This document shows positions 21,978 through 46,341 of a stretch of 64,000 nt of DNA, piece after piece. Position 1 is the first letter of the stretch. Every line of letters begins with the position of its first letter. Source of the stretch: Cunninghamella blakesleeana (Eukaryota > Mucoromycota > Mucoromycetes > Mucorales > Cunninghamellaceae). The stretch is taken from positions 1,159,501-1,223,500 of the forward strand of contig JAFCIZ010000001.1 of assembly GCA_017871115.1 (NCBI GenBank). Direction: 5' to 3'. Under the pieces are notes generated by a model. The model made no database searches, was not told where the DNA came from, and was given only the letters and a program-made list of their open reading frames with translations. Made by a program: the position numbers and the translations under genes.

Positions 21978-22050
21978 GATTCCTTGGTGTAGTCGGTTAT
22001 CACGCCTGTCTAACACACAGGCGGTCGCCAGTTCGAATCTGGCAGGAATC
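21978..22050 (+). tRNA. tRNA-Val (AAC)
   Basis: A 73-nt cloverleaf: acceptor GATTCCT pairs perfectly with AGGAATC, the anticodon stem CCTGT/ACAGG closes a seven-base loop CTAACAC (anticodon AAC, valine), and the T arm is GCCAG TTCGAAT CTGGC. The D stem has three good pairs. The internal B box (GTTCGAATC) and A box region are present, no intron, and CCA is not encoded. The gene sits just upstream of the nested Gypsy cluster. Confidence 0.95.
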
Positions 22051-22054
22051 ATTC

Positions 22055-22059
22055 TTTTT
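22055..22059 (+). terminator. RNA polymerase III terminator of tRNA-Val
   Basis: A run of five T starts four bases after the tRNA 3' end, with a second T5 run a few bases on. Confidence 0.8.
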
Positions 22060-22102
22060 ATTTTTGAAAAAATAATTTACCGGTGCCCATAAGAATCATC
22101 AT

Positions 22103-22160
22103 TGTTATGGATTATTTTAATAGTTTTTAAGATTTCTTTTTTGAAATGAGGAATGAGTAT
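22103..22160 (-). repeat. Truncated, diverged Gypsy LTR fragment (G)
   Basis: The last about 35 bp (AAGATTT...GAAATGAGGAATGAGTAT) match bases 20-55 of the LTR of elements C and D. The start TGTTATGG at 22103 would be its LTR end. The match stops at the GTAT target duplication of element C. Only this fragment is visible, so the age and origin of the element are inferred. It begins 53 bp after the tRNA 3' end. Confidence 0.55.
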
Positions 22161-22229
22161 TGTTGTGTGGGTTTTTGTTTAAGATTTATTTTTTTTTAAA
22201 TGAGGAATGAGTATTATAAGTAATATTTG
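22161..22229 (-). repeat. Element C 3' LTR, outer piece
   Basis: First 69 bp of C's left LTR, cut off from the rest by element B. The TTTG at 22226-22229 is repeated at 37065-37068 on the far side of B. Confidence 0.9.
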
Positions 22230-22234
22230 TGTTG

Positions 22235-22963
22235 TGTTGTGTAAATTTTTGGTTGTTTGAAAAATAGAATTTCCTTTTATAGTTTTGGAAAGTAGATAGC
22301 TTTGTAGTTTAGTTTAGTTGTCAGTGAGCACCAGTATCTTGTTTTATAAGTAGATACAACTTAGTTTAGATTGATAGTTTAAAATAAAAATAAAATAATA
22401 AAATAAAATAAAATAAAATAAATTATATAATCGGATAAAGATCAACAATTATATAGACAAAATAATGAAATTAAAGTAAAATAAATATAATATCGGATAA
22501 AGATCAACGATTATTATAATAATATAATATAAAATAATATTGGATAGTAATCAACAATATTAATATAAAGCAAATATAATCTTTAGCTAAAAAGATGAGT
22601 TAAGAGAATTTAATATATATAAATCTTTATTTCAAATTAACTGAATATTAACTTCGTATTAACTGATTTTTTCAAATAAAATAAAATTTCGCTCCTTTAT
22701 ATATAAAAATGATCTGAATTCAAACCCAGATTGGTAGGTAAGTTATAAAGACCATTATAACAAGGAGGAGTATAAATTGATAAAGTTATAAAAGATAAAA
22801 TAAATAAATATATATAAAATTATGAAATACTATTGGATAAAATATAAAGTTAATATATATATATATGCATATATTTATATATGCAAAAACACTTGTTTAA
22901 AAATATATTTAAAAATTATTTTTAGGATTATTTAGGTATGATAAGTTCAACCATACCATAACA
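22235..22963 (-). repeat. Element A 3' LTR
   Basis: Contains the internal PBS-like motif CAGTGAGCACCA at 22322-22333, a small hairpin after it, and three spaced repeats of a GGATAAAGATCAAC-type motif near 22432-22555. The ORF4 stop codon (22909) lies inside it. Confidence 0.92.
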
Positions 22964-23457
22964 TCCCTCCACCACGATTTAGATGACGCCGCATCTTTTT
23001 CATGCGTCCAGGTATCTAAATTTATTATCCTTTTGATCATAACCTGGTCGAGTTCATCATAAGAACCACTTTTAAATAGCTTCTTCAGTGTTTCTCTTCT
23101 TGCCCTAACATACTTATGGTAGCCTATTTTGTTTGGGTGAGCGCAACTTTGATGTATGTATTCCAAGGTTTGTGGAATAATAAAATTATCTACCAAATTT
23201 TCCTTTTCCCATCTTGCTTTTAATTCAGTAACCAAAATATCGAGTAGATTTTTATAGTTTTCCTGAATTTGAAACTTGATCCATTCACTAGTAGATATAT
23301 CCGTGTTTAACCAATATAGAAGTTCAGGAGTTAAAAAATTTAAGTCAATAGGTTCGGTTATAGGTACCAATTCATCGAGTATGTTGTCAACTTCATGGGA
23401 ATCAACAAGATCTTCTTGAGAGAGTAGTTTGTTTGTTTGGTTATCTTGTGGAGTCAT
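22909..23457 (-). CDS. Element A ORF4, accessory protein of unknown function
   Basis: 182 residues, placed after integrase where env would sit, but with no signal peptide or membrane segment. It matches ORF4 of element B over most of its length: LTPELLYWLNTD, KIQxxN, WEKENLVDN-IIP, a YIH, an RRETLKKLF block, then a WT and the SWWRDVMVWL end. The C-terminal 18 residues are encoded by the polypurine tract and the start of the 3' LTR. Acidic N-terminus, basic and helical middle. I do not recognise a known domain and do not assign a function. Present in all four family members here, in one case interrupted by T1. Confidence 0.75.
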   Translation of the reverse strand: MTPQDNQTNKLLSQEDLVDSHEVDNILDELVPITEPIDLNFLTPELLYWLNTDISTSEWIKFQIQENYKNLLDILVTELKARWEKENLVDNFIIPQTLEYIHQSCAHPNKIGYHKYVRARRETLKKLFKSGSYDELDQVMIKRIINLDTWTHEKDAASSKSWWRDVMVWLNLSYLNNPKNNF

Positions 23458-23622
23458 CTTTAATATCGTTAATATTATTTTTTTTTTTTTGAATAAAGAA
23501 AAATTATAATATAATTTTTCCTTATTTATAGTTTTTTTTTTTTCGGAATTTTAAATATATATATAAAGTTTTTCTTTTTTTTTTTTTTTAAATTTTCTTT
23601 TTCCCATAAATTTTTTTTTTTT
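23458..23622. other. Spacer between integrase and ORF4 of element A
   Basis: 165 bp of T runs around a GGAATTTTAAATATATATATA segment, which is also found in the pol-ORF4 spacer of B (about 31754-31775). The T runs are where B lost integrase. Confidence 0.6.
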
Positions 23623-24936
23623 TTATACGATTGTCTTTTTAGCAAAGTCAATCCAAAATACGTCAGGCATCTGCAACAACTTCAATTTATTGCCGTGTAT
23701 TCTTCTTAATTTGGTATTGGTCACGTTGAATTCTTTTATCAGATAAGTACCTTTACCTAAACTTTGATGAACAATATATTTGCCTTTCCAGTTATCTGAT
23801 ATTTTGCCACCCCAAGAGTTTGATTTTCTTCCAATATACATCATAACAATATCACCAATCCTAAAAGGCGGTTTCCATTCCTTCTTTTCATTATTAATCT
23901 TCTTGTCAATGGCCTTCTTTTGATTCTTTTGGGATTTCTTTATAAATTCTGCAGCGTCTTCTCTTATCTGTTTTAGTGACAATAATTCTTTTGCAGCGCG
24001 TACGTGTAACTGATATTGGAATCTTGCAGAATTTACTTCTATTGGTATATCCATAAATAAATCATAAGGTGTCTTTGCTTCATGCCCGTAAGTTAAATAA
24101 AAAGGAGAATAATTTGTTGATTTTTGTTTGATAGTACGATAGGCAAATAGAACGGATGGTAAATATTGATCCCATACTTGTTTTTCTTTATTGTTTAACT
24201 TTTTTAGAATAGCGCCTAAAGTGGAATTAAACTTTTCTATCAACCCGTTTGCTTGCGAATTCCCAACACTTATAGTTTTATGGTGGATATTGTATTGGAA
24301 ACAGACTTTTTTTATTAATTCACCTATAAATGGCTTTCCATTATCTGTAATTATTATGTGTGGCGCACCGTGTCGACAAATAATATCTTCATAAATAAAC
24401 AATGCTATTTCGGCTGCAGTTTGGAATTTTAATGCACGAGCTTCAACCCATTTCGTTAGATAATCAATACCTGCAACTATATATCTATATCCATTTTTAG
24501 ATGTAGAAATATGTTTGACATCTAATGCCCATTGGAAGAAAGGTTTGGATGTTGTTGGAATAGGGTGTAATAATTCGTTATGTTTAGCAGGACCTGTAGT
24601 TTGACATCTACTGCATTTCTTGACGTAATTCTGTACATCTTTTGTCATATTTTCCCAATAATAATGATTTGCAAGTTTGAATAATGTGTTGTGGTAACCC
24701 ATATGTCCTCCTAATGGATGTTGATGATGCATGTATAATGCTTCTGACACTTGATCTTTATTCAAAACTTTTCTTATCGTCTGCAGGTTAATATTATATC
24801 GGTACAATTCGTTGTTGTGTATGATAAATTTGTGGGAATGTTTTTGTAAATAATTTTTTTCTTTATCGGTGATGTTGTCAGGTAATTTTAATGTTGATAA
24901 ATAATTTTTTATTAAATCAATTTTGTTTTGTTCCAT
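23623..24936 (-). CDS. Element A integrase (separate ORF)
   Basis: 437 residues with its own ATG, 266 bp after the stop of the RT-RNase H ORF. The N-terminal zinc domain is HPLGGH followed by CSRC (HHCC), the catalytic triad is Asp in WALDVKH, Asp in TDNGKPF and Glu in NGLIEKF, with 35 residues between the last two (DD35E). A GPY/F-like region follows (FRIGDIVMMYIG, GKISDNWKGKY). There is no chromodomain; the end is QMPDVFWIDF. It inserts element DNA, giving 4-bp duplications here. Gypsy integrases are normally the end of the Pol polyprotein, so a free-standing ORF is unusual; C and D have the same arrangement. Confidence 0.92.
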   Translation of the reverse strand: MEQNKIDLIKNYLSTLKLPDNITDKEKNYLQKHSHKFIIHNNELYRYNINLQTIRKVLNKDQVSEALYMHHQHPLGGHMGYHNTLFKLANHYYWENMTKDVQNYVKKCSRCQTTGPAKHNELLHPIPTTSKPFFQWALDVKHISTSKNGYRYIVAGIDYLTKWVEARALKFQTAAEIALFIYEDIICRHGAPHIIITDNGKPFIGELIKKVCFQYNIHHKTISVGNSQANGLIEKFNSTLGAILKKLNNKEKQVWDQYLPSVLFAYRTIKQKSTNYSPFYLTYGHEAKTPYDLFMDIPIEVNSARFQYQLHVRAAKELLSLKQIREDAAEFIKKSQKNQKKAIDKKINNEKKEWKPPFRIGDIVMMYIGRKSNSWGGKISDNWKGKYIVHQSLGKGTYLIKEFNVTNTKLRRIHGNKLKLLQMPDVFWIDFAKKTIV

Positions 24937-25202
24937 TTTTACTGATATTTGTTGTAAATTTCTTGTATTTAGATTCTTGAATATATTGTTGAATAATATT
25001 TTAGTAATACTGATAAATAGTGTTGATCGATTATAAGTGTAGGTATGCAGCTTTTTACGACTTCAGCAAAACTTGGTCGATTGGTAAGTAATTGAATTTT
25101 TTTTTTTTTTGTTTTTGTTTGTTTTTTGTTTTTTGTTTTTTTTTTTTTTTTTTTTTTATATATATATATATATATGTATTTATATTTTTGCATTTTGTTA
25201 TT
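24937..25202. other. RT-integrase spacer of element A
   Basis: 266 bp of untranslated sequence, A-rich in the sense direction, with long T runs at about 25098-25156 on the plus strand and an (AT)n tract. The short Lys/Tyr ORF in it is low-complexity and not counted as a gene. I see no GT...AG pair that would join RT to integrase. Confidence 0.55.
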
Positions 25203-28200
25203 TTAGTAGCCTAGTCTTGAAAGAAAATCGGCAGCTTCTTGTTTTCTTCCAGCCCTATATTTGATTTCAAATTCATAATCGGCCAAATATGTGATCCATC
25301 TTGCAACAATTCCAGTAGCTTTTGGCGATTCAATTAACCATTTTAGCGGCGAATGATCAGATATAACAGTAAACTTCTTTCCCAATAAATACGGTCTGAA
25401 TATTTGTAAACTCCATACCAAAGCAAGACATTCTAATTTAGTAGCACCATAGTTTAATTCATTATTCTTCAATCCTCTACTAGCAAATATTATTGGATGT
25501 TCACGACCATCATCATCTAGTTGTGTTAATATAGAACCTAATCCTAGTTGTGAAGCATCGCATACAACAATGAATGGTTTATCAAAATCAGGTCTTCTTA
25601 ATATTGGAGCATTGATTAGATTTTCCTTTAATTTTTCAAAAGCTTTTGTTGTATCTTCTGTCCATGGTATTCTCTTTTTGGTTTTTGTTTGATCATGTAA
25701 TGGCCTAGCAGTAGCAGCAAATCCTTTTACAAATCTTCTGTAATAAGAAGCTAAACCTAAGAAGCCTCTAACTTGTTTAATTGTTTTTGGTATTGGATAA
25801 TCTTTAACCTTTGCAATTTTATCTGGATCTGTCTTGATTCCTTCAGCAGTTATTATGTAGCCTAAAAATTTTAATTCATCTTTAAAGAATATACACTTTT
25901 CAATATTAAACACCAATCCACCTCTTCTAGTGTATTCAAATAATCTTTCCAAGTCAATTAGGTGTTGATCCAAGTTTTTAGAATGTACATTAAGATCATC
26001 AATAAATGCAACTAGATTACTATGCAGCAAATCTTTATAACAGATATCAATTAATCTTTGGAAGGTAGCAGGACTATTCACCAATCCCATTGGCAGCATT
26101 TCGTATTGATAAGTACCAAATTTAGTTGTAAAGCCAGTTAATTCTTTACTTGATTCTTTTAATGGAACTTGATGGAAACCAGATCTTAAATCCAAAGCAG
26201 AAAATATTTTTGATTTTCCAAGTTCATCAATTAAATCATCAATACGTGGTAGTGGATATGAATCAACCTTTGTATGTGTATTCAGTTTACGATAGTCAAC
26301 TACCATACGATATTCACCATTCTTCTTTTTGACTAAGATAATTGGTGCAGTAAAAGGAGAATTTGAAGGTTTTATAATTCCCAATTCACAAAGACGGTTT
26401 AATTCATTCTTCAAATATTCTTGTTCACTTGGTCCCAATCTATATGGTCTATGTCTGATAGGTAATGTATTTTCTTTTAATATTATTTCATGTTCGATTA
26501 ATGTAGTTTTTCCCATTTTATCATTATTCCAATCAAAGATATCTTGATAGTGGTGTATTAATTTATAAAATTTCTTTTTGTATTCTTCAGGTATGTCACC
26601 CATTTGGATTTTTCCTTTTATATTTGGATCAAGAATAATTTCTTCAGTATCATCTTCCAGCAGAGAAGGTGGTAATTCTCTATAGTGGTCTTCAAAATCA
26701 TAACCAGTATATTCGACATATGGATCCTTTTGTATTGGAAATTGTTTCCTATTTATGAATTCACCTAGTATGTTGTTTGGCGGTATTTCCATCATGTCTT
26801 CAGTTTTATTTATAATTTCCAAGATTACATCAAAGTCTTCGTGCTTGTCCAAAAATTCGTCAAGATGTTTAAAATGTGGAACAATTATATTTTCATCAAT
26901 AGCATAGTTGATTTGACAAATATGGTAAGGTGGTATTGATAAACCAGTACTTCCACTTAATATCATCATAGTACCTTCATCTTTATTTGGACGTGTTTGG
27001 ATTACTGGACTTTTTGCATGATCATCCATTAAATAAAAGTCTTCATCATCTTGTACAGCATCTTCTTCATTGCTATCAGTAGAATCTCCATCATCAGTAG
27101 AATCTTCATCATTAGAATCAGTATCATCTTCTGAATCACTAGCACTTGATATATTTTCAGCTACATCTTCACCTTGCGGCTGTTCCAATTCATATCTTGC
27201 ATTTGTAACACGTTGGTATGTATATGGACGTTCATTTGATTTTATATATGTAATTGGAATTTCTTGTGTACGACGTTTATAAGTCACCTTTAAAGTACCC
27301 GTTTTAAAGTTAATCACCGCTTGTGCATGATCCAACCAGCTAGTACCTAACACTATATGTGGTGGACACTTTGGTAATACTTCAACATCAATTGGTATAG
27401 TCAATCCTTTACCAACAGTAATAGGAACATCATGAATTACACCTAACGCAGGTTGTTTAGTACCATTTCCCATTACAAAAATACTTGTAGATGGTGCATC
27501 AATTTCTAGATCTAATGATTTCATCATTGCCCTGGACATACAAGCTCTTGCAGCTCCACAATCAATTAATCCAGTAACCTTTACATCATTCACCATTATA
27601 TCGGCATATGCAGCGGTAGTTACAACATCACTATTATCAATAGAATTTAATTGTACATCTTTTTCTTTACCTTTATCAATTGGTCTTTTTATTCTTGATT
27701 GTCTACAAGCTGTAATCAATTCTCTTCTTAATGGAGCAGATATAGTTATAAGATCACCAACATTAATATTAGCTTTTTGATGTAATGTATCTTCAGAAAT
27801 ATTATAATTTATTGATAATGGTTGTGATTTCCTTTTTGGTGTCTTCTTCTTTTTATCCACAGGTGGTTCTTGAATGGATACTTTTTTCCTTTTATCATTT
27901 ATTATTTGTACTTCTTCCATCATATCATTATTATTTGATTTAGAAGGTTCAGCTACATCTTGATTTGGATGCTGTGAAAATACGTTTTGGAAAAATGGAT
28001 TATTTTGTGGTGGAACATGTGTATGATCACGAATATCTTGTTGTATTTGTTGTGGAATAGATTTTGTAGCAGCTGCTGATGTACTTGGTTTTTCTATAAT
28101 CTTCCTTGTACGTGGTTTTCTTATTGCTTTTTCAACAACTGGTGGTTTTGGATTTGCAGCAACATTAAAATCACAATCATTGATTTCTTGATCACTATCT

Positions 28201-28448
28201 AATATATTTTGAAGATAATAATGATTTTGTGCTGATAAATAATCATTATGGTTGTCCATTATGTTATGTGGAACGTAAGTAGTGGGATTATAATTTCGTG
28301 TATTTAAGTTGTCATTATTTGGTGTATTATAGTTGTGATATTTATTAATATTATTTTCTTGATATAGTTGATTATTATTTGGATGGATGGATTTTGTAAT
28401 AGGGATTCCCAATTGACCATCTGTTACAATTGCCCTATTTAGTTTTTT
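25203..28448 (-). CDS. Element A Pol: protease, reverse transcriptase, RNase H
   Basis: The frame from the slippery site (28442-28448) to the stop at 25203 covers about 1,080 codons; the first ATG is at 28412. Frame sequence upstream of that ATG (NRAIVTDGQL) matches the fused gag-pol of C (DRAIASNGQL), which shows that translation enters by -1 frameshift. Domains in order: an Asn-rich linker, a retropepsin-like domain with LIDCG where DTG/DSG is usual, RT with FIDDLNV (YxDD box) and LPMGLVNSPATF, and RNase H with Asp in VVCDAS, Glu in KLECLAL and Asp in ISDHSPL. It ends AADFLSRLGY without integrase. The protein is nearly identical to that of B. Confidence 0.93.
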   Translation of the reverse strand, partial: KKLNRAIVTDGQLGIPITKSIHPNNNQLYQENNINKYHNYNTPNNDNLNTRNYNPTTYVPHNIMDNHNDYLSAQNHYYLQNILDSDQEINDCDFNVAANPKPPVVEKAIRKPRTRKIIEKPSTSAAATKSIPQQIQQDIRDHTHVPPQNNPFFQNVFSQHPNQDVAEPSKSNNNDMMEEVQIINDKRKKVSIQEPPVDKKKKTPKRKSQPLSINYNISEDTLHQKANINVGDLITISAPLRRELITACRQSRIKRPIDKGKEKDVQLNSIDNSDVVTTAAYADIMVNDVKVTGLIDCGAARACMSRAMMKSLDLEIDAPSTSIFVMGNGTKQPALGVIHDVPITVGKGLTIPIDVEVLPKCPPHIVLGTSWLDHAQAVINFKTGTLKVTYKRRTQEIPITYIKSNERPYTYQRVTNARYELEQPQGEDVAENISSASDSEDDTDSNDEDSTDDGDSTDSNEEDAVQDDEDFYLMDDHAKSPVIQTRPNKDEGTMMILSGSTGLSIPPYHICQINYAIDENIIVPHFKHLDEFLDKHEDFDVILEIINKTEDMMEIPPNNILGEFINRKQFPIQKDPYVEYTGYDFEDHYRELPPSLLEDDTEEIILDPNIKGKIQMGDIPEEYKKKFYKLIHHYQDIFDWNNDKMGKTTLIEHEIILKENTLPIRHRPYRLGPSEQEYLKNELNRLCELGIIKPSNSPFTAPIILVKKKNGEYRMVVDYRKLNTHTKVDSYPLPRIDDLIDELGKSKIFSALDLRSGFHQVPLKESSKELTGFTTKFGTYQYEMLPMGLVNSPATFQRLIDICYKDLLHSNLVAFIDDLNVHSKNLDQHLIDLERLFEYTRRGGLVFNIEKCIFFKDELKFLGYIITAEGIKTDPDKIAKVKDYPIPKTIKQVRGFLGLASYYRRFVKGFAATARPLHDQTKTKKRIPWTEDTTKAFEKLKENLINAPILRRPDFDKPFIVVCDASQLGLGSILTQLDDDGREHPIIFASRGLKNNELNYGATKLECLALVWSLQIFRPYLLGKKFTVISDHSPLKWLIESPKATGIVARWITYLADYEFEIKYRAGRKQEAADFLSRLGY

Positions 28449-29560
28449 GAACCATTAACTGGTGTGTTGTTTTGATTATTATTTGGTGGATTATTATAAT
28501 TATTTTGTTGTGGATAGTTATATTGTGGATTATAATTATTATTATTATGCATTTGATTTCCTTGGTAATAATAATCTCTGTTGTTATAATTATCTTCAGG
28601 TAAATATTGATTGTTATAATTATGATTATTGTTGTTGTTATTATTATTATTATATTGACGATAATTGTTATACTGATTATTTCTGTATTTTTGATTATTA
28701 TTTCTGTTGTAATTATTAGGTCCATTATATGTTTGGTTGTTACGAGTATTATTGTTGTTGTTTCTTTGGTTATTGTACGAACCTCTTTTGTCTTCCAATT
28801 TGGTGTTTATCAATTTTTCCATATGACCTAAAAGTTTTTGCATGAATGCAGATTCTCCATCAACATGTTCAGCTGTATTTAATGATATATTGCCATTATG
28901 ATCACCATAATTATTATTTGACTTCTTTTTATGGCCTCCAGCAAATCTATTAGCATTGGTAAGATTACATACAGATGGTAATGATTGTATATGTCTTGTC
29001 TTCCACCAATTTTCAGCATAGTTATACCATTGATTCAATGTTTCAGCACCTTGATCCATACAGTGTATTCTGATTTCTTCTTTTAAACCAGCACGGAATC
29101 TCATCAATATAATATGGTCATCCTTCAATTGTGCCAATCTTGCCATTTCTTGGATACGTGCCAAAAAGTTCTTTGGTCTTTCGTCATTGCCTTGTTTAAT
29201 AGTACCAAGTGCAATTTCGTATGATAATATCAATTCTTTGGTGACATACTTTTCCCTTAAAGCATTCATCAATTTTTGATAATCATTAGCCATATTAGGA
29301 TCTTGTTCTAATTGTTCAAAATAGAATTCAGCAGGACCAGACAATTGCACCTTCAAGATAATTGCCCTTCTATCCATACCAACTCTAGATAATTTAAAAT
29401 AATTTTCCAAGGACTTTTCAAAATAACGAAAGTCTTCGTCATCAGAACCTGAAAAAGTTAAAAGATTAAGCTTCAGCTTAGCAGCAAGGTTAGGATCATG
29501 GTGATGATCATGATTTTCCAACGCGGTTTGCTCGATACTTGATTTTTGTGGATTTTCCAT
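28439..29560 (-). CDS. Element A Gag
   Basis: 373 residues starting MENPQKSSIEQ. The capsid-like core (LNLLTFSGSDDEDFRYFEKSLENYF, then FYFEQLEQDP and MARLAQLKDDHIILMRFRAGL) fits Retrotrans_gag. The C-terminal 120 residues are Asn/Tyr/Arg/Gln-rich and have no CCHC zinc knuckle, so RNA binding may depend on the basic Asn-rich tail. The stop TAA directly follows an A AAA AAC heptamer, allowing a minority of ribosomes to enter Pol. Confidence 0.9.
   Translation of the reverse strand: MENPQKSSIEQTALENHDHHHDPNLAAKLKLNLLTFSGSDDEDFRYFEKSLENYFKLSRVGMDRRAIILKVQLSGPAEFYFEQLEQDPNMANDYQKLMNALREKYVTKELILSYEIALGTIKQGNDERPKNFLARIQEMARLAQLKDDHIILMRFRAGLKEEIRIHCMDQGAETLNQWYNYAENWWKTRHIQSLPSVCNLTNANRFAGGHKKKSNNNYGDHNGNISLNTAEHVDGESAFMQKLLGHMEKLINTKLEDKRGSYNNQRNNNNNTRNNQTYNGPNNYNRNNNQKYRNNQYNNYRQYNNNNNNNNNHNYNNQYLPEDNYNNRDYYYQGNQMHNNNNYNPQYNYPQQNNYNNPPNNNQNNTPVNGSKN
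28442..28448 (-). promoter_or_regulatory. -1 ribosomal frameshift slippery site (element A gag/pol)
   Basis: The sense strand reads A AAA AAC in the gag frame, followed at once by the gag stop TAA. Slipping back one base gives AAA AAA CTA AAT and enters the Pol frame. This is the canonical X XXY YYZ heptamer. Confidence 0.8.
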
Positions 29561-29710
29561 TGGAATATAAAGATAAGTTTTTGAAATAGGATGATAAAGT
29601 TTGTGTATTTTTAAAGTAGTTGTTTAACTTGAATTTAAGTATTCTTGATTATATTCTTTTATAGATTTAGTTATTCCTTGATAATTAGTGTTTCCCCGGT
29701 TTTTAGTATT

Positions 29711-29730
29711 ATCCCCGCCAGTGAGCACCA
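29711..29730 (-). other. Primer-binding site of element A
   Basis: The sense strand reads TGGTGCTCACTGGCGGGGAT, five bases inside the 5' LTR end. It should pair with the 3' end of a tRNA ending AGTGAGC-A-CCA; I cannot name that tRNA. Confidence 0.75.
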
Positions 29731-29735
29731 AAATA

Positions 29736-30464
29736 TGTTGTGTAAATTTTTGGTTGTTTGAAAAATAGAATTTCCTTTTATAGTTTTGGAAAGTAGATAG
29801 CTTTGTAGTTTAGTTTAGTTGTCAGTGAGCACCAGTATCTTGTTTTATAAGTAGATACAACTTAGTTTAGATTGATAGTTTAAAATAAAAATAAAATAAT
29901 AAAATAAAATAAAATAAAATAAATTATATAATCGGATAAAGATCAACAATTATATAGACAAAATAATGAAATTAAAGTAAAATAAATATAATATCGGATA
30001 AAGATCAACGATTATTATAATAATATAATATAAAATAATATTGGATAGTAATCAACAATATTAATATAAAGCAAATATAATCTTTAGCTAAAAAGATGAG
30101 TTAAGAGAATTTAATATATATAAATCTTTATTTCAAATTAACTGAATATTAACTTCGTATTAACTGATTTTTTCAAATAAAATAAAATTTCGCTCCTTTA
30201 TATATAAAAATGATCTGAATTCAAACCCAGATTGGTAGGTAAGTTATAAAGACCATTATAACAAGGAGGAGTATAAATTGATAAAGTTATAAAAGATAAA
30301 ATAAATAAATATATATAAAATTATGAAATACTATTGGATAAAATATAAAGTTAATATATATATATATGCATATATTTATATATGCAAAAACACTTGTTTA
30401 AAAATATATTTAAAAATTATTTTTAGGATTATTTAGGTATGATAAGTTCAACCATACCATAACA
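29736..30464 (-). repeat. Element A 5' LTR
   Basis: 729 bp, same as the 3' LTR where compared. The internal PBS-like motif is at 29823-29834, 87 bp from the LTR end. Confidence 0.92.
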
Positions 30465-30468
30465 GTTG

Positions 30469-31098
30469 TGTAAATTTTTGGTTGTTTGAAAAGTAGAATT
30501 TCCTTTTATAGTTTTGGAAAGTAGATAGTTTTGTAGTTTAGTTTAGTCGTCAGTGAGCACCAGTATCTTGTTTTATAAGTAGATACAACTTAGTTTAGAT
30601 TGATAGTTTAAAATAAAAATAAAATAATAAAATAAAATAAAATAAATTATATAATTGGATAAAGATCAACAATTATATAGACAAAATAATAAAATTAAAA
30701 TAAAATAAATATAATATCGGATAAAGATCAACGATTATTATAATAATATAATATAAAATAATATTGGATAGTAATCAACAATATTAATATAAAATAAATA
30801 TAATCTTTAGCTAAAAAGATGAGTTAAGAGAATTTAATATATAAAAATCTTTATTTCAAATTAACTGATTTTTCAAAAATAAAAATAAAAATGTCGAGTA
30901 TTTATACTATTTTTTAGAAATAAGGTTTGACTTTTTATCTTCTGAGAGAAGGTAAAAGTATAGAACTTTTTATCTTCCAAGAGAAAGTAAAAGTAATATA
31001 TAAACTTTTTATCTTCCCATGAAAGGTAAAAGTATAAAATAAGGTTTAAAATTTAAACACCGTTTTTGAAGTGATCCAAACGAATCCACTTCATAACA
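30469..31098 (-). repeat. Element B 3' LTR, main piece
   Basis: Completes the 635-bp LTR with 22230-22234. Its first about 400 bp match A's LTR; the U3 part (30880-31098) is different and holds three tandem imperfect palindromes at 30930-31034. The ORF4 stop (31053) lies inside. Confidence 0.9.
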
Positions 31099-31670: not shown

Positions 31671-31809
31671 GTTGAAGAGATAAAAGTTATTATTATTATT
31701 TATAATTTTTTTTTTTTTTCAAAATTTTCCTTATTTATAGTTTTTTTTTTTTCGGAATTTTAAATATATATATAAAGTTTTTCTTTTTTTTTTTTTTCTT
31801 TTTCCCATA

Positions 31810-36429: not shown

Positions 36430-37064
36430 TGTTGTGTAAATTTTTGGTTGTTTGAAAAGTAGAATTTCCTTTTATAGTTTTGGAAAGTAGATAGTTTTGT
36501 AGTTTAGTTTAGTCGTCAGTGAGCACCAGTATCTTGTTTTATAAGTAGATACAACTTAGTTTAGATTGATAGTTTAAAATAAAAATAAAATAATAAAATA
36601 AAATAAAATAAATTATATAATTGGATAAAGATCAACAATTATATAGACAAAATAATAAAATTAAAATAAAATAAATATAATATCGGATAAAGATCAACGA
36701 TTATTATAATAATATAATATAAAATAATATTGGATAGTAATCAACAATATTAATATAAAATAAATATAATCTTTAGCTAAAAAGATGAGTTAAGAGAATT
36801 TAATATATAAAAATCTTTATTTCAAATTAACTGATTTTTCAAAAATAAAAATAAAAATGTCGAGTATTTATACTATTTTTTAGAAATAAGGTTTGACTTT
36901 TTATCTTCTGAGAGAAGGTAAAAGTATAGAACTTTTTATCTTCCAAGAGAAAGTAAAAGTAATATATAAACTTTTTATCTTCCCATGAAAGGTAAAAGTA
37001 TAAAATAAGGTTTAAAATTTAAACACCGTTTTTGAAGTGATCCAAACGAATCCACTTCATAACA
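36430..37064 (-). repeat. Element B 5' LTR
   Basis: 635 bp, TGTTGTGTAAA...TTCATAACA. PBS-like motif begins at 36517, 87 bp from the LTR end. Confidence 0.92.
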
Positions 37065-37068
37065 TTTG

Positions 37069-37799: not shown

Positions 37800-38236
37800 C
37801 CCCCAACGCCAACAAAAGATGGACCTCCATCTTTATTAAATCCCACTTGGCTCCAAAGATCATTCTTATTAACATTTCTTGCAAATATTTTATTGAATTT
37901 AGAGTTACCTAAACCAGAGAGCAAATAATTTACAAGCTTTGATCTTTCCATCTTATACGCAATGAGTTCTTCTTTAGTAGCAGGAGGTTGGAGCTTTGTA
38001 TGTACAAACCGAACAACAACTGGACTAAGTTGCTTGGAGAAGGTAGTTTGCATCTTCACTTTTAACTTCTTTATTTTTTCATAATCATTGACATACATAG
38101 GATAGATAAACTTAATAAACGTCTTGTATGAGTCTTCTTCATTAAGTGAGTCAAATTCAGCGAGGGCTTGTAAAGTTTCGTCATAAAGATTATCTTCGTC
38201 CAAAGGAACCCGTTCGGTATTAATTGGCATATCCAT
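37778..38236 (-). CDS. Element C ORF4, accessory protein
   Basis: 152 residues, intact. Starts MDMPINTERVPLDEDNLYDE, acidic, then basic helices (KIKKLKVKMQTTFSKQL, FVHTKLQPPATKEELIAY, GLGNSKFNKIF), then NDLW and KDGGPSF, and ends in the LTR (GGVSNNAL). Although shorter, its layout and the D-x-W...KDGGPS block place it with ORF4 of A and B. No known domain seen, no signal peptide. Confidence 0.72.
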   Translation of the reverse strand: MDMPINTERVPLDEDNLYDETLQALAEFDSLNEEDSYKTFIKFIYPMYVNDYEKIKKLKVKMQTTFSKQLSPVVVRFVHTKLQPPATKEELIAYKMERSKLVNYLLSGLGNSKFNKIFARNVNKNDLWSQVGFNKDGGPSFVGVGGVSNNAL

Positions 38237-38327
38237 TTTATAAAAATATATTTTTGTATTATTAAAATAAGTGTTTTTGTATTGTTAAAAGATTTTCAAA
38301 AGAAAATGTGAATATGTGAATGAAAGT

Positions 38328-38361
<34 letters not shown>

Positions 38362-38576
38362 TTTTTTCTTTTTTTTCGTAGTTTGAAAAATATACTTCTT
38401 TTTTTTTTGTAATCATCTTTTTGGTTCTTCCTTTTTTTTTTTTTTTTGTTTATGTTTATCTTTTATGTATATTATTTTAATGTAGTTATTATATAAATTC
38501 TTCTTCGGGTAAACACGTGAATTAATATTTTAAATTTCATTATTAATTATATTTATATATTTCTTTTTTTTTTTTT
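38237..38576. other. Integrase-ORF4 spacer of element C
   Basis: 340 bp of T runs and AT sequence, with a CACGTG hexamer near 38513 inside a GGGTAAACACGTG segment that is also present in D (near 49458). No ORF. Confidence 0.5.
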
Positions 38577-39895
38577 TTATATGTCCAATCCATAGGTTTT
38601 ATTTACGTGATTATTCCAATATACATCTGGTAATTGCAATATTTTTAGTCTGTTTCCGTGTATTCTTCTTAATTTTGTTCTTGTTGTATCCAAGGATTTT
38701 ATTATATACGTGCCTTTTCCAAGTGATTGATGTATTGTATATTTTCCTTGCCACATATCGGAAATCTTACCAGACCAAGAATTTGATTTTATACCAGTAT
38801 ATAAAGTTACTATATCCCCAATTCTAAATGCTGGTTTCCATTCTCTATTACTGTTTAAAACTTTTTTATCAATAGCCCGTTTTTGGTTTTCTTGAGATTT
38901 TTCTATCATTTTTGCAGCTGTCGATCTTATCTGATTGAGTGATATAATTTCCTTATTTGTACGTAATTTTAATTGTGTATCAAAATTATAAGAATTAAAA
39001 TCTATAGGTTTGTCATGTTGATCGAATGGGGTTTTAACATTATATCCGTAAGTTAAAAAGAATGGTGATTGTTGAGTAGATGCCTGTCTGATTGAACGAT
39101 AAGCAAATAGAACTGATGGTAGATATTGATCCCATATTGATTTTTCCGTGGAAGTTACCTTTTTTATAATAGACCCAAGTGTAGAATTAAATTTTTCAAT
39201 TAATCCATTGGCTTGAGAATTTCCAACTGAGATTGTGTTGTGATGAATATTATATTGATAGCAAACTTTCTTTATAAGGTCACTGATAAATGGTTTACCA
39301 TTGTCGGTTATAATTAAATGAGGAGTACCATGCCGACATATTATTTCTTCATAAATAAACAAAGCAACTTCGGATGTAGTTTGATAACGAAGCGCACGCG
39401 CTTCTACCCATTTTGTTAAATAATCTATTCCTGCAATAATATATCTATAACCGCCTTTAGATGTGGGAACATGTTTAACGTCTAATCCCCATTGTTCAAA
39501 AGGTTTTGACTTGACAGGTATTGGATATAAGAATTCATTTAACTTTCTTGAACCAGTTGATTGACATCTTGGACATTTTTTATATATATTTGTATATCTT
39601 TTGCCATGCCATCCCAATAATATCTTATAGATAGTTTATATAAAGTATTGTGATAACCTATATGACCACCTAAAGGATGTTGATGATACATATAAAGTGC
39701 TTCTATGGCTTCTTGTTTATTTAATACTTGTCTTAAGGTTTGGTGATAAATATTAAACTTATATAATTTATTATTGCGAATGATAAAGTTGTGTGAATTA
39801 CGTTGTAAGTATCTTTTCATTTTTGCTGTTGTGTTTTCAGGTATTTTTAATGTAGTAAGGTACTCTTTTAATTTATCTATAGTTTGTTGGTCCAT
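38577..39895 (-). pseudogene. Element C integrase, frameshifted
   Basis: Start at 39895 (MDQQTIDKLKEYL), stop at 38577. The frame breaks near 39576-39582: C has six T where D has seven, just before the CPRC of the zinc domain. Past this the second frame holds an intact catalytic core with Asp in WGLDVKH, Asp in TDNGKPF and Glu in NGLIEKF, and a GPY/F-like end. Like A's integrase it is a separate ORF with its own ATG and has no chromodomain. The break is one homopolymer base and may be a sequencing error. Confidence 0.85.
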
Positions 39896-40448
39896 TTTTT
39901 TTTTTTTTTAAGTATAATTATATATATTTGTTGTTTTTATTATTGTTGTTAGATTTGTTGTTTAGGCTTTGTTGTAAGTTATTTTAATAATATAATTTAA
40001 TAAGTGTTATTTATGTTGTAATAATTATGTATTTTGTTGGTTTGGATATAGCTTTTAATGTCTTCAATCACCTTTGGACAAATATATTTTTTTTTTTTTT
40101 TGTGCTGTTTTTTTTTTTTTTTTTTAAATTGATGTTGTTGGAATAATTGTTTGTTAAATAACTGTTATAAAAGATTTGTTGTAATATAAATAATTGTTGT
40201 AAATAAATGAAATATATGTTGTAAATAAATAAAATAACTATTGTAAAATATAATTTTTTGTTGTATGTGTTGTTGAAATAATAATAATTGTTGTAGAATG
40301 TTGTCTTTTGTATAATAATTGTAATATAATAAATTGTTATGTTAATATTTGTCTAGCTTTTATCGTCTTCAATTTCCCTTGGACGTATAATAATAATATT
40401 TTTTATAATAATTCTTTTTTTTTTTTTTTAAAATATTTTTTTTTTTTT
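39896..40448. other. RT-integrase spacer of element C with repeated motif
   Basis: 553 bp without ORF. It has several T runs, many TTGTTGTA-type repeats, and two copies of a 30-bp motif (TAGCTTTTA..GTCTTCAAT...TTGGAC) starting near 40049 and 40352. D has the same structure. Confidence 0.6.
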
Positions 40449-43400
40449 TTAATACCCAAGTCTTGAAAGAAAATCTGCAGACTGTTGTTTTTTTCCACTA
40501 CGATACTGTATTTCAAAATCATAATCAGCCAAGTAAGTAATCCATCTTGCCACCATACCAGTAGGTTTAGGTGCTTTTATTAGCCATCGTAAAGGAGAAT
40601 GATCAGAAAGGACTGTAAACTTTTTTCCTAAAAGATATGGTCTAAAAGTTTGTAAACTCCATATGAGAGCCAGACATTCTAGTTTAGTTGCACTATAATT
40701 TTGTTCACTTTGCTTTAAACCTCGGCTTGCATATACTACTGGATGTTCTTGATTGTCATCATCCAATTGTGTGAGTACACAGCCTAATCCTTCCATAGAT
40801 GCATCACATACAATTATAAATGATTTATTAAAATCAGCCCTTTTAAGAATCGGTGCTTCTGTTAGTTTTTGTTTTAAAAGTTCAAATGATTTTGTTGTTA
40901 TTTCAGTCCATGGTGATTTATTTTTTGTTTTTGTTACGTCATGTAAAGGTCTTGCTATTGCTGCAAAATTTTGTATGAATCGTCTGTAATAAGAAGCTAG
41001 TCCAATAAATCCCCTGATTTGCTTAACTGTTGTCGGTTGAGGAAAATCTTTTACTTTTTCTATTTTTGCTGGATCTGTTTTTATTCCATCTTGCGTTATT
41101 ATATATCCCAGGAATTTTAATTCATTTTTAAAGAAGACACATTTTTCTATATTAAAAAGTAGTCCACCTTTACGAGCACATTTGAATAATTCTTCTAAAT
41201 CTAATAAGTGTTGTTCTATACTTTTTGAGTGTACATTCAAATCATCTATATAGGCTACTAGACATCTATTAATCATTGATCTAAAACATATATCTATTAA
41301 CCGTTGGAATGTTGCAGGACTATTAACTAAACCCATTGGTAGCATTTCATATTGATAGGTGCCAAATTTTGTGACGAATCCAGTTAATTCTTTACTATTA
41401 TTTTTTAAAGGTACTTGGTGAAATCCTGACCTAAGATCTAAAGCTGAAAATATACTTGAAGTACCAAGTTCATCAATAAGATCATCAATTCTAGGTAATG
41501 GGTAAGCATCTACTTTAGTTTGTGCATTTAATTTTCTATAGTCTACTACCATTCTGTAATCGCCATTTTTCTTCTTAACTAATATAATAGGAGCAGTATA
41601 AGGTGTATTAGCAGGCTTAATTATTCCCAATTCACATAGTCGATCCAATTCCTTTTTTAAATATTCTTGTTCCATTGGACTCATACGATAAGGTCGATGT
41701 CTAATGGGTACTGTATTATCTTGTAAAATTATTTCATGTTCAATCATAGTAGTACATCCCATTCTATCATTGTTCCAGTCAAAAACATCTTGATAATGAT
41801 TTATTAGTTTCCAAAATTTAATTTTATAATCTTCAGGTATATTTCCAAGTTGTAGTTTTTCTTTAAGAGATTCATCCAGTGTTTCATCATCATCCATATT
41901 ATCAATATTAAATAATTCTTCTGTTAATCCATTCATGTCAAGTGATTCAACTATATCATAACCTTTCAGATCATCAGCTTCTAATACACATTCATTATTC
42001 ATTAAATTATAATATTCACTAATTATATGATGAGGTGGTAAATCAATATCATTATCAGATCTATTAATTAAATTTAATGTAAATTCGTTTGGATTAGCAA
42101 TAGCATTTTGATCATCTTGAGTAAGAAGTATAGGTTCAGATGTATGCATAGAAGGATTTACATAGAATTGACAATTTGTATGAGGAGGTATGGTCATCCC
42201 TTGAATACCAGTAGATATAATTAAACTATTTTCATTTGATTACGATCAATATTAATTCTAACGTCATCTTCCATATAATAATTTTCTTCATCAGAGTATT
42301 CATCATGTTCCCAATCATCATCAGTTTCAGTGTCTGTTGTTGTTTCAAGATCACTATTTGTTGTATCAAAATTATTATCTATTTCGTTAGTATCCTTTGT
42401 TGTATTATCTTGTGTTGAGTTTGCAGATTGATATTTAATATTAATTGATTTAATTGTAACTAACGGCTTATCTGTTTCTTTTAAAAATGTAATTGGTAAT
42501 TCAGCTGATTTATGTTTATACAAAACTTTAAGAGTACTTGTCCTAAAATTAAGAAGAGCTTGAGCATGACTTAACCAATTATTGCCTAAAACCAAGTGAG
42601 CAGGACATTTAGGTAATACTTCCATATTAACAGGTATTATAATGTCAGGTGTTACTTGTATTTGTACATCATGTATTGTTCCAAGAGTTGCTTGTTTTGT
42701 ACCATTTCCTAAAATAAAGATATTAGTAGAAGGAGCATCAATTTGTAAACCTAATAATTTCATCATTGATTTTGACATGCAAGATTTCGAGGCACCGCTA
42801 TCAATCAATCCTCTTATTCTTTTATCATTAATAATTAAACTTGTATAAGCTGCTGTTGTAGTAAGTTCTGTGTTAGTTAATGTATTTAATGGTATGTCTG
42901 TTGCAGTTGTATCGGTTTGATCTTTTATTTTTGTTGCTTTTCTTTTAGGTCTACATGCAGTTAATAATTGACGTCGTAAAGTATGTGATGATTTAATTAA
43001 ATCTCCAACATCAATATTGGCTTTTTGTTTAAAAACATCATCTACTATGTTATAGTTTATTTGCACTGGAGATGGTGGTTGTCGTTTACGTTTTGTTTTA
43101 TTTTCTGGTTCAATAGTATTATCCATAATATAATCATTAATCATGTCTTGTTGAGATAGCTGTTGTTCAGTAATATCTTCAATTAATTTAGATGTATTAT
43201 TTATATTTAATTTTTGTTTTCCTTTGTTGATTGTTTTTGGAGTCTTAGAAGATGAAGGTATAACTGCAGGTGGTTTGTCTAATCTGGCTGCATAAAGATC
43301 TTCATCATCATAATGTGTATATTCATTTTCATCCCATAATTCATGTTGATCAAATATTGCATTCATATTTTGTTGATTATTTTCTGTATTATTGTCTTTT

Positions 43401-44569
43401 GTATTGTTTTTATTATTTTTATAAAAGTTATTGTTGTTATTGTGATTATTATTGCTAATATTGTTATTATTATTATTGTTATTAATGGATTTGTTATCAG
43501 GGACTGCCAATTGACCATTAGATGCAATTGCCCTGTCTAGTTTTTGATTGAGTTTGTTGATTATATTGTTGTTGATGTGTTGTTGGTTAGGTAAATAATT
43601 ATGATTATTATTATCATAATTATTATCTTGATTATATTGTTGGTTGTTATAACGTCTTGATCCATAGTTATTTTTATATGGTCCATAATTATGAGATCCA
43701 TGGTAATTATTATAGTTATTACTTCTATTAGATTTCGATAGTTCATTTCGTACTATTTTAACAATATCATCACTGGTAAGGTTATCATTTTTAAGAGGTT
43801 TCTTAGTCGATTGATTCAATTGTTCCATTCTATCATTCATTTTCTTTTCCATGGTTTCCATATTAGTAACTAAGCGTTCTAATAATGTTACAACTGGATC
43901 AGAATGAATAGACGATTTAGAATCCATGGCACGTTGACTAGAATCCATCATTGTAAAAGAATCTACATTTCCAAGTGGATAATTGTTCGATTGTACATCA
44001 GTACTAGAATAATTATGAGTAATACCATAAGTCTTATTAGCATTCCACCATGATTCTGCATACTTCAACCATTGTTGTTCAGTAATGGAACCATGTTCAA
44101 TACAATGTTTACTGATGGCAGGTAATAATCCATAACGAAAACGCATCGATACAATGTCTTTGTCATCTTTTTTTGCTAATCGCGCAACTTCTTGTAACCT
44201 AGAATAAAAATCACGTGGATGTTCATCAGTACCTTGACGCATATCATTAAGAATTAACTTATAAGATTCAAGTAGTTCTGGAGTTACAAACTTTTCTTCT
44301 AAAGCATCCATCGCTACATCAAAAGTTAAACTATCTTGAAATTGATCTTTGAGCGAATCCAAATAAGTTTTAGCCGATTTTCTGACTTGTATCTTCAATA
44401 TAGCAAGTTTTCTACTATCTGTAGTATTGTTAGAGAGTTCCAAGAATGTTTCTAGAATTTGTCTGAAGTGACGGAAGTCTTCACGTTCACCACCAGAAAA
44501 AGGAATAAGTTGAGGTTTGAAGTCCATGAATGGTTGTTTTTGAGCCAACACGGTATAATCGTAAGACAT
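40449..44569 (-). pseudogene. Element C Gag-PR-RT-RNase H, one frameshift
   Basis: One long gag-pol frame from 44569 (MSYDYTVLAQKQP) to the stop at 40449, interrupted near 42235 where C has ATTTG and D has ATTTTG. Part one (782 codons) holds Gag with an Asn-rich tail and the protease motif LIDSGASKSC; part two holds RT with YIDDLNV, LPMGLVNSPATF, and RNase H (IVCDAS, KLECLAL, LSDHSPL), ending ADFLSRLGY. Unlike A and B, gag and pol are fused without a slippery site: sequence matching A's frameshift window (NKLNQKLDRAIASNGQL) is simply in frame. Related to A but clearly a different subfamily. Confidence 0.88.
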
Positions 44570-44670
44570 CCTATAATTAATTATTTTCAGTTTGCTTGAT
44601 TATTGTTTAGTAGTTTATATAGAATGAATATCTTTCCCAGTAGTTATTGAAAGTATAAGCTTGTAGAAAA

Positions 44671-44691
44671 GATCCCCGCCAGTGAGCACCA
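44671..44691 (-). other. Primer-binding site of element C
   Basis: Sense strand TGGTGCTCACTGGCGGGGAT, four bases inside the 5' LTR. Same presumed primer tRNA as A. Confidence 0.75.
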
Positions 44692-44695
44692 AATA

Positions 44696-45512
44696 TGTTG
44701 TGTGGGTTTTTGTTTAAGATTTATTTTTTTTTAAATGAGGAATGAGTATTATAAGTAATATTTGATATGTATAATATAATTCCAGTGAGCACCAGTTCCT
44801 GTTTTATAAGTAGAACGACTTAATATAAAGGAATAAAAAAATAAAATAAAATAAAGTAAAAATAAAGAAATAAAAAATATAAAAATTTTAAAAGGTGTAA
44901 TATAATTACAGGATTAAAGAGAGATTTCAGTAACCGCAATGTAAAATAAATATAATAAGAAAATTTAAAAAGTAATTTAAATTTGAGTGGTTGAAAAATA
45001 TTTAAGTAAATAAATATAAAAATATAATATAAAATAATATAGTTTGTTATAAAAAAAATAGATAAATTCAGTAATTTGAATAAGTTATAAGTAAAATAAG
45101 TTAAAATTATAAAATATGATTTATAAAGTGGACAAGTTCAATAATTATTTAATAGATAATAATTTATTATAAAAATTTGACAATTTAAAAGAAAGAAAGA
45201 GAGAAAAATTGGTTCTATTTATATTTAAAAAAAAAAATTAAAATTTATAAGGATCGGGTAAGGAACAAAAGCACCTTGGTGTTTTTGTACCTTTGGTGTT
45301 TTTGCACCTTTGGTGTTTTTGCACCTTGGTGTTTTTGCACCTTGGTGTTTTTGCACCTTGGTGTTTTTGCACCTTGGTGTTTTTGCACCTTGGTGTTTTT
45401 GCACCTTGGTGTTTTTGCACCTTTGGTGTTTTTGCACCTTGGTGTTTTTGCACCAGTAGCACAAAGCCAATCCAAAAAAGGAAAGAAAAATCAGAGAGCG
45501 TTATTGCTAACA
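44696..45512 (-). repeat. Element C 5' LTR
   Basis: 817 bp, TGTTGTGTGGG...GCTAACA, followed by the duplicated GTAT at 45513-45516. PBS-like motif at 44782-44794. Confidence 0.92.
45276..45461. repeat. 16-bp LTR minisatellite, 11 units
   Basis: Same repeat as in the left LTR of C with one unit more. Confidence 0.92.
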
Positions 45513-45516
45513 GTAT

Positions 45517-45577
45517 TGTTGTGTAAATTTTGGGTTGTTTGAAAAGTAGAATTTCCTTTTATAGTTTTGGAAAGTAG
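45517..45577 (-). repeat. Fragment of a B-type LTR (F), interrupted by element D
   Basis: 61 bp matching the first 61 bp of B's LTR with one change (TTTTGGG for TTTTTGG). Element D starts directly after GGAAAGTAG. The rest of F must lie beyond D, outside the window. C sits exactly at its left edge. Confidence 0.8.
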
Positions 45578-46341
45578 TGTTGTGTGGGTTTTTGTTTAAG
45601 ATTTATTTTTTTTGAAATGAGGAATGAGTATTATAAGTAATATTTGATATGTATAATATAATTCCAGTGAGCACCAGTTCCTGTTTTATAAGTAGAACGA
45701 CTTAATATAAAGGAATAAAAAAAATAAAATAAAATAAAGTAAAAAATAAAGAAATAAAAAAATAAAAATTTTAAAAGGTGTAATATAATTGCAGGATTAA
45801 AGAGAGATTTCAGTAACCGCAATGTAAAATAAATATAATAAGAAAATTTAAAAAGTAATTTAAATTTGAATTGTTGAAAAATATATTTAAGTAAATAAAT
45901 ATAAAATAAAAAAATAAAATGATATAGTTTGTTATAAAAAAATAGATAAATTCAGTAATTTGAATAAGTTATAAGTAAAATAAGTTAAAATTATAAAATA
46001 TGATTTATAAAGTGGACAAGTTCAATAATTATTTAATAGATAATAATTTATTATAAAAATTTGACAATTTAAGAGAAAGAAAGAGAAAAAAAATGATTCT
46101 ATTTATACAAAAAAAAAAAGATAAAAATTAAAAATTTATGAGAGTGAGGAGAGATAAAATAAAGTTTGGAGTCATAACGCTGGAGTCATGACGCTGGAGT
46201 CATAGCACCGGAGTCATGACGCTGGAGTCATAGCACCGGAGTCATGACACTGGAGTTATGGCTCTGGAGTCATGGCACCAGTAACACAAAATCAGGCCCA
46301 AATAAGGAAAAAAAAAATATTAAAGAGCATTATTGCTAACA
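45578..46341 (-). repeat. Element D 3' LTR
   Basis: 764 bp. Very similar to C's LTR in the first about 550 bp, but the U3 minisatellite is a different sequence. PBS-like motif begins at 45665, 87 bp from the LTR end. Confidence 0.9.
46168..46279. repeat. 14-bp LTR minisatellite, about 8 units
   Basis: Unit GGAGTCATGACGCT with variants ending GCACC. It lies where C has the unrelated 16-bp repeat. Confidence 0.9.

What the first reader, a model, noticed from the sequence alone, without database searches (positions are those of the whole stretch)
21978..45580. A pile of same-oriented Gypsy insertions just downstream of tRNA-Val
Seen: six related LTR ends follow tRNA-Val. Once later insertions are subtracted, insertion points fall about 52 bp (G), 110 bp (F and C), 171 bp (D in F), 179 bp (B) and 184 bp (A) after the tRNA 3' end. 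All are in minus orientation with the 3' LTR facing the tRNA, and A, B and C have exact 4-bp duplications. Known: Ty3 in yeast and TRE, DGLT-A and Skipper elements in Dictyostelium target tRNA genes. Inference: this family has integration directed to a window 50-190 bp downstream of Pol III genes. Nesting in LTRs would then be a result of position, not of LTR sequence.
Basis: partly seen in the sequence, partly recalled or inferred. Interest (0 to 1): 0.86.

Follow-up and report, generated by a model that had tools for sequence, protein, structure and literature searches.

The report
One-way jumping genes behind tRNA genes
In a mould of the Mucorales, related virus-like jumping genes pile up just behind tRNA and U6 RNA genes, nearly always pointing the same way, which suggests that their insertion machinery docks on the transcription apparatus of those genes and can tell its two DNA ends apart.

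Summary
Behind tRNA-Val (21977-22052 +) lies a nested pile of Ty3/gypsy LTRs. With later insertions subtracted, the gaps are G 51, F and C 108, D 169, B 177, A 182 bp. The 3' LTR always faces the tRNA, and TSDs are exact for A, B, C and D. The host is a Mucorales fungus.

51 of 90 have a listed Pol III site within 400 bp on the U5 side, all on the same strand; random sets gave mean 0.15, maximum 3. With only the 63 Rfam-scored tRNAs it is 27 of 90, again all same-strand. On the other side: 0 of 90. Both U6 genes found have such an LTR 52 and 64 bp behind them, so the target is Pol III genes, not tRNA alone.

No chromodomain was found in the integrase. Ty3 and Tj1 insert upstream; Skipper-2 inserts downstream in amoebae but has a chromodomain. 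tRNA co-localisation was already reported in Rhizopus. Downstream insertion with fixed antisense orientation in a fungus appears new. The tether is inferred.

The parts
21977..22052 (+). tRNA-Val(aac) gene, the target of the pile
   Evidence: ARAGORN; Rfam RF00005 63.6 bits
22104..22160 (-). G: gene-proximal remnant of a family-2-like LTR
   Evidence: read by eye against C's LTR start
22161..22229 (-). C: U5 end of its 3' LTR (family 2), left piece before B
   Evidence: TSD GTAT
22230..22234 (-). B: first 5 bp of its 3' LTR (family 1) before A
   Evidence: TSD TTTG
22235..30464 (-). A: complete family-1 Ty3/gypsy element, LTRs 22235-22963 and 29736-30464
   Evidence: LTRs 729 of 729 identical, TSD GTTG; RT, RNase H, protease, integrase domains
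23623..24936 (-). integrase ORF of A (H2C2, rve), no chromodomain found
   Evidence: Pfam; model mean pLDDT 82.8
25203..28412 (-). protease-RT-RNase H ORF of A
   Evidence: Pfam
28439..29560 (-). probable gag ORF of A (by position only)
   Evidence: no Pfam family
22909..23457 (-). extra ORF of A after the integrase, function unknown
   Evidence: counterparts in B and C
30465..37064 (-). B: rest of the element (starts with the TSD copy GTTG); no integrase region
   Evidence: RT/protease ORF 31888-35091
37065..45512 (-). C: rest of the family-2 element (starts with the TSD copy TTTG); 5' LTR 44696-45512
   Evidence: Pfam
45517..45577 (-). F: gene-proximal 61 bp of a family-1 solo LTR; the rest lies beyond the window
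45578..64000 (-). D: family-2 element, interrupted by other transposons; 3' LTR 45578-46341, 5' LTR beyond the window; TSD GTAG

Best explanation
At least two related Ty3/gypsy families without a recognisable chromodomain, in a Mucorales fungus, integrate just downstream of RNA polymerase III genes (tRNA and U6), mostly 40-200 bp past the gene, and essentially in one orientation: the U5 end of the 3' LTR toward the gene, so the element is transcribed toward the gene. Shown here: side, distance, orientation, spread over many tRNA types and U6, youth of the window copies, and nesting concentrated in the gene-proximal 150 bp of older LTRs. Inferred: the integration complex is tethered to a factor shared by tRNA and U6 genes (TFIIIC, TFIIIB or Pol III itself), and the tethered complex tells the U5 end from the U3 end. 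Because old LTRs fill the same window, newcomers nest in them and push earlier ones outward, which builds piles.
For: 51 of 90 clusters have a listed Pol III site within 400 bp on the U5 side, 51 of 51 same-strand, random mean 0.148, maximum 3 of 2000 sets; other flank 0 of 90 within 1.4 kb of the last U5 end. With Rfam-scored tRNAs only: 27 of 90, all same-strand. Contig 1, all flanks read: 17 of 27 clusters with a tRNA at 60-324 bp and one with U6 at 53 bp, all same-strand; no tRNA in the trailing flanks fetched. Both U6 genes found have an LTR behind them. Ten amino-acid types on contig 1, with different junctions, so insertions are independent. Exact TSDs (8 of 27 contig-1 lead LTRs also show a matching 4-bp repeat at LTR length). 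LTR pairs without mismatches.
Against: 39 of 90 clusters have no listed site within 400 bp. On contig 1, 8 of the 9 such are in or at other LTR-element sequence, but one (L040) is in unique DNA without a recognised Pol III gene. Gene by gene there are two exceptions to orientation or side: one downstream with U3 facing (an element apparently lying between two convergent tRNA genes) and one upstream with U3 facing. Four opposite-strand tRNA placements lie 866-1950 bp from contig-1 leads. A local GTNN target preference exists. No tether was tested; U6 has no B-box word within 1.27 kb downstream, so TFIIIC is not shown to be shared. 5S genes show no listed LTR nearby. The orientation could in principle come from selection.
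Confidence: 0.85

Rival explanations
1. Insertion happens on both sides and in both orientations near Pol III genes, and selection removed all but downstream antisense copies.
For: The Tj1 authors name selection as a formal possibility for their own fixed orientation (PMC4600332, passage). Upstream insertions might harm tRNA expression (general knowledge).
Against: The window copies have LTR pairs without mismatches, leaving little time for selection; 51 of 51 is very one-sided; copies transcribed toward the tRNA are not obviously the least harmful (inference).
Confidence: 0.08
2. The elements prefer LTR sequence; the first insertion happened to be near a tRNA and the rest followed it.
For: 46 of 71 distinct outer junctions lie in LTR sequence; GTNG preference at the duplicated bases; some LTR positions are used more than once.
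Against: Founding insertions in non-LTR DNA behind tRNA genes exist at several loci (for example L014, L022, L047); 35 of 46 LTR junctions are in the gene-proximal 150 bp; LTR preference alone does not put 51 of 90 clusters behind Pol III genes in one orientation.
Confidence: 0.03
3. A sequence-specific protein bound to a palindromic motif behind tRNA genes, rather than the Pol III machinery, is the tether (compare Sap1 and Tf1 in fission yeast, seen in passages of PMC7175516).
For: YGGRTAAA-type motif 18-27 bp behind 12 of 25 tRNA genes read, against 0 of 25 upstream (the pattern was chosen after looking).
Against: Not found at the other occupied tRNA loci read, nor in the 52 bp between U6 and its LTR.
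Confidence: 0.07
4. tRNA plus LTR units were copied together by segmental duplication.
For: Some gene copies share downstream sequence (two tRNA-Ala loci, L028 and L046).
Against: Those two have their LTR at different gaps (323 and 153); tRNA-Val and tRNA-Glu copies have different flanks; ten amino-acid types plus U6 are involved.
Confidence: 0.01

Closest known systems
Tj1 of Schizosaccharomyces japonicus (PMC4600332, passages)
   Same: LTR retrotransposon at Pol III genes with fixed orientation; by geometry the U5 end also faces the gene (my inference).
   Different: 5-11 bp upstream of tRNA genes and in the sense direction; here downstream, tens to hundreds of bp, antisense.
Ty3 of Saccharomyces cerevisiae (PMC8632968 and PMC5911963, passages)
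   Same: Ty3/gypsy order of domains; targets Pol III genes; integrase fold similar (7q5b).
   Different: Upstream, a few bp from the start site; inserts in both orientations when TFIIIC is intact; docks on TFIIIB partly by a vestigial chromodomain that is not found here.
Skipper-2 of dictyostelids (PMC5006619, section 6 part 1, section 11 and passages)
   Same: Ty3/gypsy LTR element downstream of tRNA genes (7-136 bp in the species listed).
   Different: Has a diverged chromodomain and no canonical primer binding site; amoeba host; orientation not stated in the text seen.
Ty3-like elements of Rhizopus oryzae (PMC2699053, passages)
   Same: Mucorales; said to be often co-localizing with tRNA genes; Rhizopus integrases are among the closest named proteins.
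   Different: No side, distance or orientation in the text seen; the figure is not held.
TRE3 of dictyostelids (PMC5911963, passages)
   Same: 40-150 bp downstream of tRNA genes with a fixed orientation.
   Different: Non-LTR element, sense direction; a different integration chemistry (general knowledge).

Membership tests
Ty3/gypsy (Metaviridae) LTR retrotransposon | LTRs with short TSD, and order protease-RT-RNase H-integrase | tested here: met
   (A; TSD 4 bp)
Ty3/gypsy (Metaviridae) LTR retrotransposon | tRNA-type primer binding site (TGG) next to the 5' LTR | tested here: met
   TGGTGCTCA 5 bp (A, B) and 4 bp (C) past the LTR; which tRNA primes was not found
Chromovirus / Skipper | chromodomain after the integrase C-terminal domain | tested here: not met
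   no Chromo hit at E up to 10 in A or C integrase ORF; A's ORF ends 17 residues after the last modelled strand. A very diverged or separately encoded domain is not excluded
Skipper-2 | insertion downstream of tRNA genes | tested here: met
Skipper-2 | polypyrimidine tract in place of a primer binding site | tested here: not met
   TGG primer-binding motif present in A, B and C
Tj1-like targeting | fixed orientation relative to the Pol III gene | tested here: met
   51 of 51 clusters; two gene-level exceptions
Tj1-like targeting | insertion upstream, near the transcription start | tested here: not met
   no U5-facing LTR end within 400 bp upstream of 134 listed sites; one U3-facing within 1.4 kb
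Rhizopus Ty3-like elements | shared element lineage | tested here: inconclusive
   integrase 51-56% identical to named Rhizopus proteins over most of its length; no tree was built
Pol III-tethered integrase | direct contact of integrase with TFIIIB, TFIIIC or Pol III | not testable with these tools
   needs protein interaction work

The most novel reading that the evidence does not exclude
A Ty3/gypsy integrase without the chromodomain is tethered to the 3' side of Pol III transcription units (tRNA and U6 alike) and reads the two ends of its own DNA apart, so that the U5 end always lies next to the gene. With Tj1, which by geometry also puts the U5 end next to the gene but from the upstream side, this suggests a general rule: a Pol III-docked integration complex can be polar, U5 gene-proximal, whichever flank is used.
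Probability: 0.5. Interest if true: 0.86.

Novelty: new variant of a known kind. Interest (0 to 1): 0.76.

Why it matters
[quoted passage not shown] A further case on the opposite flank, with dozens of natural insertions and including U6 genes, makes the question of what polarises an integration complex testable by comparison. It also takes downstream tRNA targeting out of the dictyostelids, to which a 2018 review confined it, and gives an archive of repeated insertions at single Pol III genes.

Tried and rejected

Segmental duplication of tRNA-LTR units: rejected from differing junctions.

Other Pol III RNAs near the ten contig-1 loci left without a tRNA: Rfam at gathering score found only U6; a loose scan of 8 of those loci found nothing convincing.

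B box near U6: no B-box word on the sense strand within 1.27 kb downstream of the one U6 locus held, so whether TFIIIC is the common factor stays open.

Structure of the extra ORF: poor model (pLDDT 59.8, pTM 0.45), not used; Pfam hits to it are below cut-off. The fold list was used only to place the integrase; no fold is excluded by it.

The 1606-aa ORF 57780-62600, tried as a host gene, is another retroelement.

Limits: only the first 100 places were listed for each LTR pattern (194 and 168 in all), ordered by mismatches, then contig. The list of 134 Pol III sites holds 54 B-box sites, some surely not tRNA genes (reversed-pattern controls 8, 3 and 11 hits for the three words). Nine B-box hits on contigs 11 and 12 with rDNA-like spacing were dropped before counting. 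The three words and two of the three tRNA queries were chosen from tRNA genes that lie beside LTRs, so the 134 list is not wholly independent of the LTRs; the 63 Rfam-scored tRNAs are (27 of 90 clusters). Outside contig 1 the flanks were not read.
Full report
WHAT IS THERE. tRNA-Val(aac) sits at 21977-22052 on the plus strand. From 52 bp past its end onward the sequence is a stack of LTR elements, all on the minus strand. Junctions: A 22235-30464, TSD GTTG, 5 bp into B's LTR; B, TSD TTTG, 69 bp into C's LTR; C 22161-45512, TSD GTAT, beside G's remnant (22104-22160) and exactly at the start of F. D starts 61 bp inside F. The flank beyond the window (L013, fetched) shows D's 5' LTR, then GTAG and the rest of F, a solo LTR; F's two outer flanks do not match. 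Behind it lie a solo LTR of a third family and another family-1 LTR.

HOST. A class II aldolase ORF in the window (8235-8954 +) has its best named matches, 90% identical, in Cunninghamella blakesleeana and Chlamydoabsidia padenii. The genome held is 31.94 Mb in 12 contigs; the window has 23-35% GC in 2-kb steps. Mucorales, perhaps Cunninghamellaceae; the species was not determined.

GENOME-WIDE TEST. Patterns for the two LTR U5 ends occur 194 and 168 times with up to 3 mismatches, reversed-pattern controls 0; 100 places of each were listed. These 200 form 90 same-strand clusters. Using only the 63 tRNAs that Rfam scored, 27 of 90 clusters have one within 400 bp on the U5 side, all same-strand. 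Using 134 listed Pol III sites (63 Rfam tRNAs, 54 B-box sites, 15 tRNAs from DNA searches, 2 U6), 51 of 90 do, all 51 same-strand; random placements give mean 0.148, maximum 3 in 2000 sets. Beyond the other end of the clusters 0 of 90 have a site within 1.4 kb of the last U5 end, that is about 0.6-0.8 kb past the LTR. Per gene, LTR ends found are: 65 downstream with U5 facing (within 400 bp), 0 upstream with U5 facing (400 bp), 1 downstream with U3 facing and 1 upstream with U3 facing (1.4 kb). The downstream U3 case is an element that seems to lie between two convergent tRNA genes. 53 of the 134 sites have a listed LTR end within 400 bp behind them: 29 of 63 Rfam tRNAs, 10 of 15 from DNA searches, 12 of 54 B-box sites, 2 of 2 U6. 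These are lower bounds, since 162 ends were not listed.

CONTIG 1 IN FULL. The flanks of all 27 clusters of contig 1 were read. 17 have a tRNA at 60-324 bp and one has U6 at 53 bp, all same-strand on the U5 side; the trailing flanks, about 5 kb each, hold no tRNA by ARAGORN. Four opposite-strand placements lie 866-1950 bp away on the U5 side. Of the other nine, L013 is D's 5' LTR of the present pile, L033 and L037 are 5' LTRs next to a primer binding site, five (L016, L020, L024, L044, L045) sit in or at the end of other LTR-element sequence by BLAST and by eye, and one (L040) is in unique DNA without a recognised Pol III gene, with a B-box-like word 118 bp before the LTR. So 18 of the 19 not beginning in element sequence beyond the fetched range lie behind a Pol III gene, although LTR scraps often lie between gene and LTR.

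DISPLACED MEMBERS. With one further tRNA from contig 1 added, 38 clusters remain without a site within 400 bp. 21 of them have a same-strand Pol III site within 25 kb on the U5 side, against 7 opposite-strand, and 1 and 2 on the trailing side. Piles that push older members outward would give this.

U6 AND 5S. Two U6 genes were found (47 of 3424 candidates scored). Both have an LTR end 52 and 64 bp behind them on the same strand, one family 2, one family 1. U6 is not a tRNA, so the common target is the Pol III transcription unit. The 5S genes found lie on contigs 11 and 12 with no listed LTR near; the truncated list and repeat arrays make this weak evidence either way.

POSITION OR LTR SEQUENCE. 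Of 71 distinct outer junctions in held DNA, 46 lie in LTR sequence: 35 in the 150 bp nearest the U5 end, 4 at 151-300 and 7 beyond (binomial 4e-15 against an even spread over 700 bp). Matches to LTRs on the opposite strand were 4 of 62, all short and weak. This fits position. But GTNG at the duplicated bases is seen in 15 of 71 against 2.5%, and the family-1 LTR start is GT-rich, so local sequence matters too.

MECHANISM. Shown: side, distance, orientation, breadth of targets, youth. Inferred: a tether between the integrase complex and a factor at Pol III genes, and recognition of U5 against U3 by the tethered complex. In Ty3 a vestigial chromodomain contacts TFIIIB (PMC8632968, passages); none is found here, so another contact would have to serve. 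A palindromic motif of YGGRTAAA type lies 18-27 bp behind 12 of 25 tRNA genes read (13 of 25 by the pattern, one of them inside an LTR; 5 on the other strand), 0 of 25 upstream, 3.1% of random 60-mers. It may mark a bound factor, but it is missing from other occupied loci, including the stretch between U6 and its LTR, and the pattern was chosen after looking.

WHAT IS KNOWN. A 2018 review lists fungal LTR elements at tRNA genes as upstream and says that downstream insertion is found only in dictyostelids, comparing with S. cerevisiae (PMC5911963, passages). Skipper-2 is the downstream case, with a chromodomain (PMC5006619, section 6 part 1, section 11 and passages). Tj1 is the fixed-orientation case, upstream and sense (PMC4600332, passages). 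In Rhizopus oryzae, LTR elements were said to be 'often co-localizing with tRNA genes' (PMC2699053, passages), so association in Mucorales is not new. I found no report of downstream, single-orientation insertion in fungi in searches, which cover open-licence PMC papers only.

Noticed in passing
30465-37064: Element B lacks the integrase region yet has TSD and LTRs without mismatches, so it was probably mobilised in trans.
   Followed up: partly
22909-23457, 31053-31670, 37778-38236: Extra ORF next to the 3' LTR in A, B and C, kept even in integrase-less B, 16-35% identical to A's; no known domain; model too poor to use.
   Followed up: partly
behind tRNA genes in L002, L005-L007, L010, L014, L022, L026, L029, L039, L042: Palindromic YGGRTAAA...TTTAYCC-type motif 18-27 bp past the tRNA 3' end in 12 of 25 flanks; in some loci followed by GGTGCGC or TTTTATTGG. 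Looks like a common element behind tRNA genes.
   Followed up: partly
45578-64000 and L013: D is broken by Tc3/mariner-like ORFs (47913-48716 -, 52821-53429 +) and by a plus-strand retroelement ORF with a chromodomain (57780-62600).
   Followed up: partly
22323-22334 and 45664-45675, and the copies in other LTRs: LTRs of both families carry a primer-binding-site-like word (CAGTGAGCACCA, the complement strand of TGGTGCTCACTG) roughly 80-95 bp in from the U5 end.
   Followed up: no
L040, 118 bp before C1:6251569 (-): B-box-like AGTTCGAATAG beside the one contig-1 element in unique DNA without a recognised Pol III gene; possibly an unannotated Pol III transcript.
   Followed up: no
G000 C1 3.74-3.83 Mb, C2 1.36-1.48 Mb, C5 3.27-3.34 Mb, C6 3.27-3.38 Mb: Dense groups of LTR ends and tRNA genes in both orientations; could be pericentromeric, not examined.
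   Followed up: no
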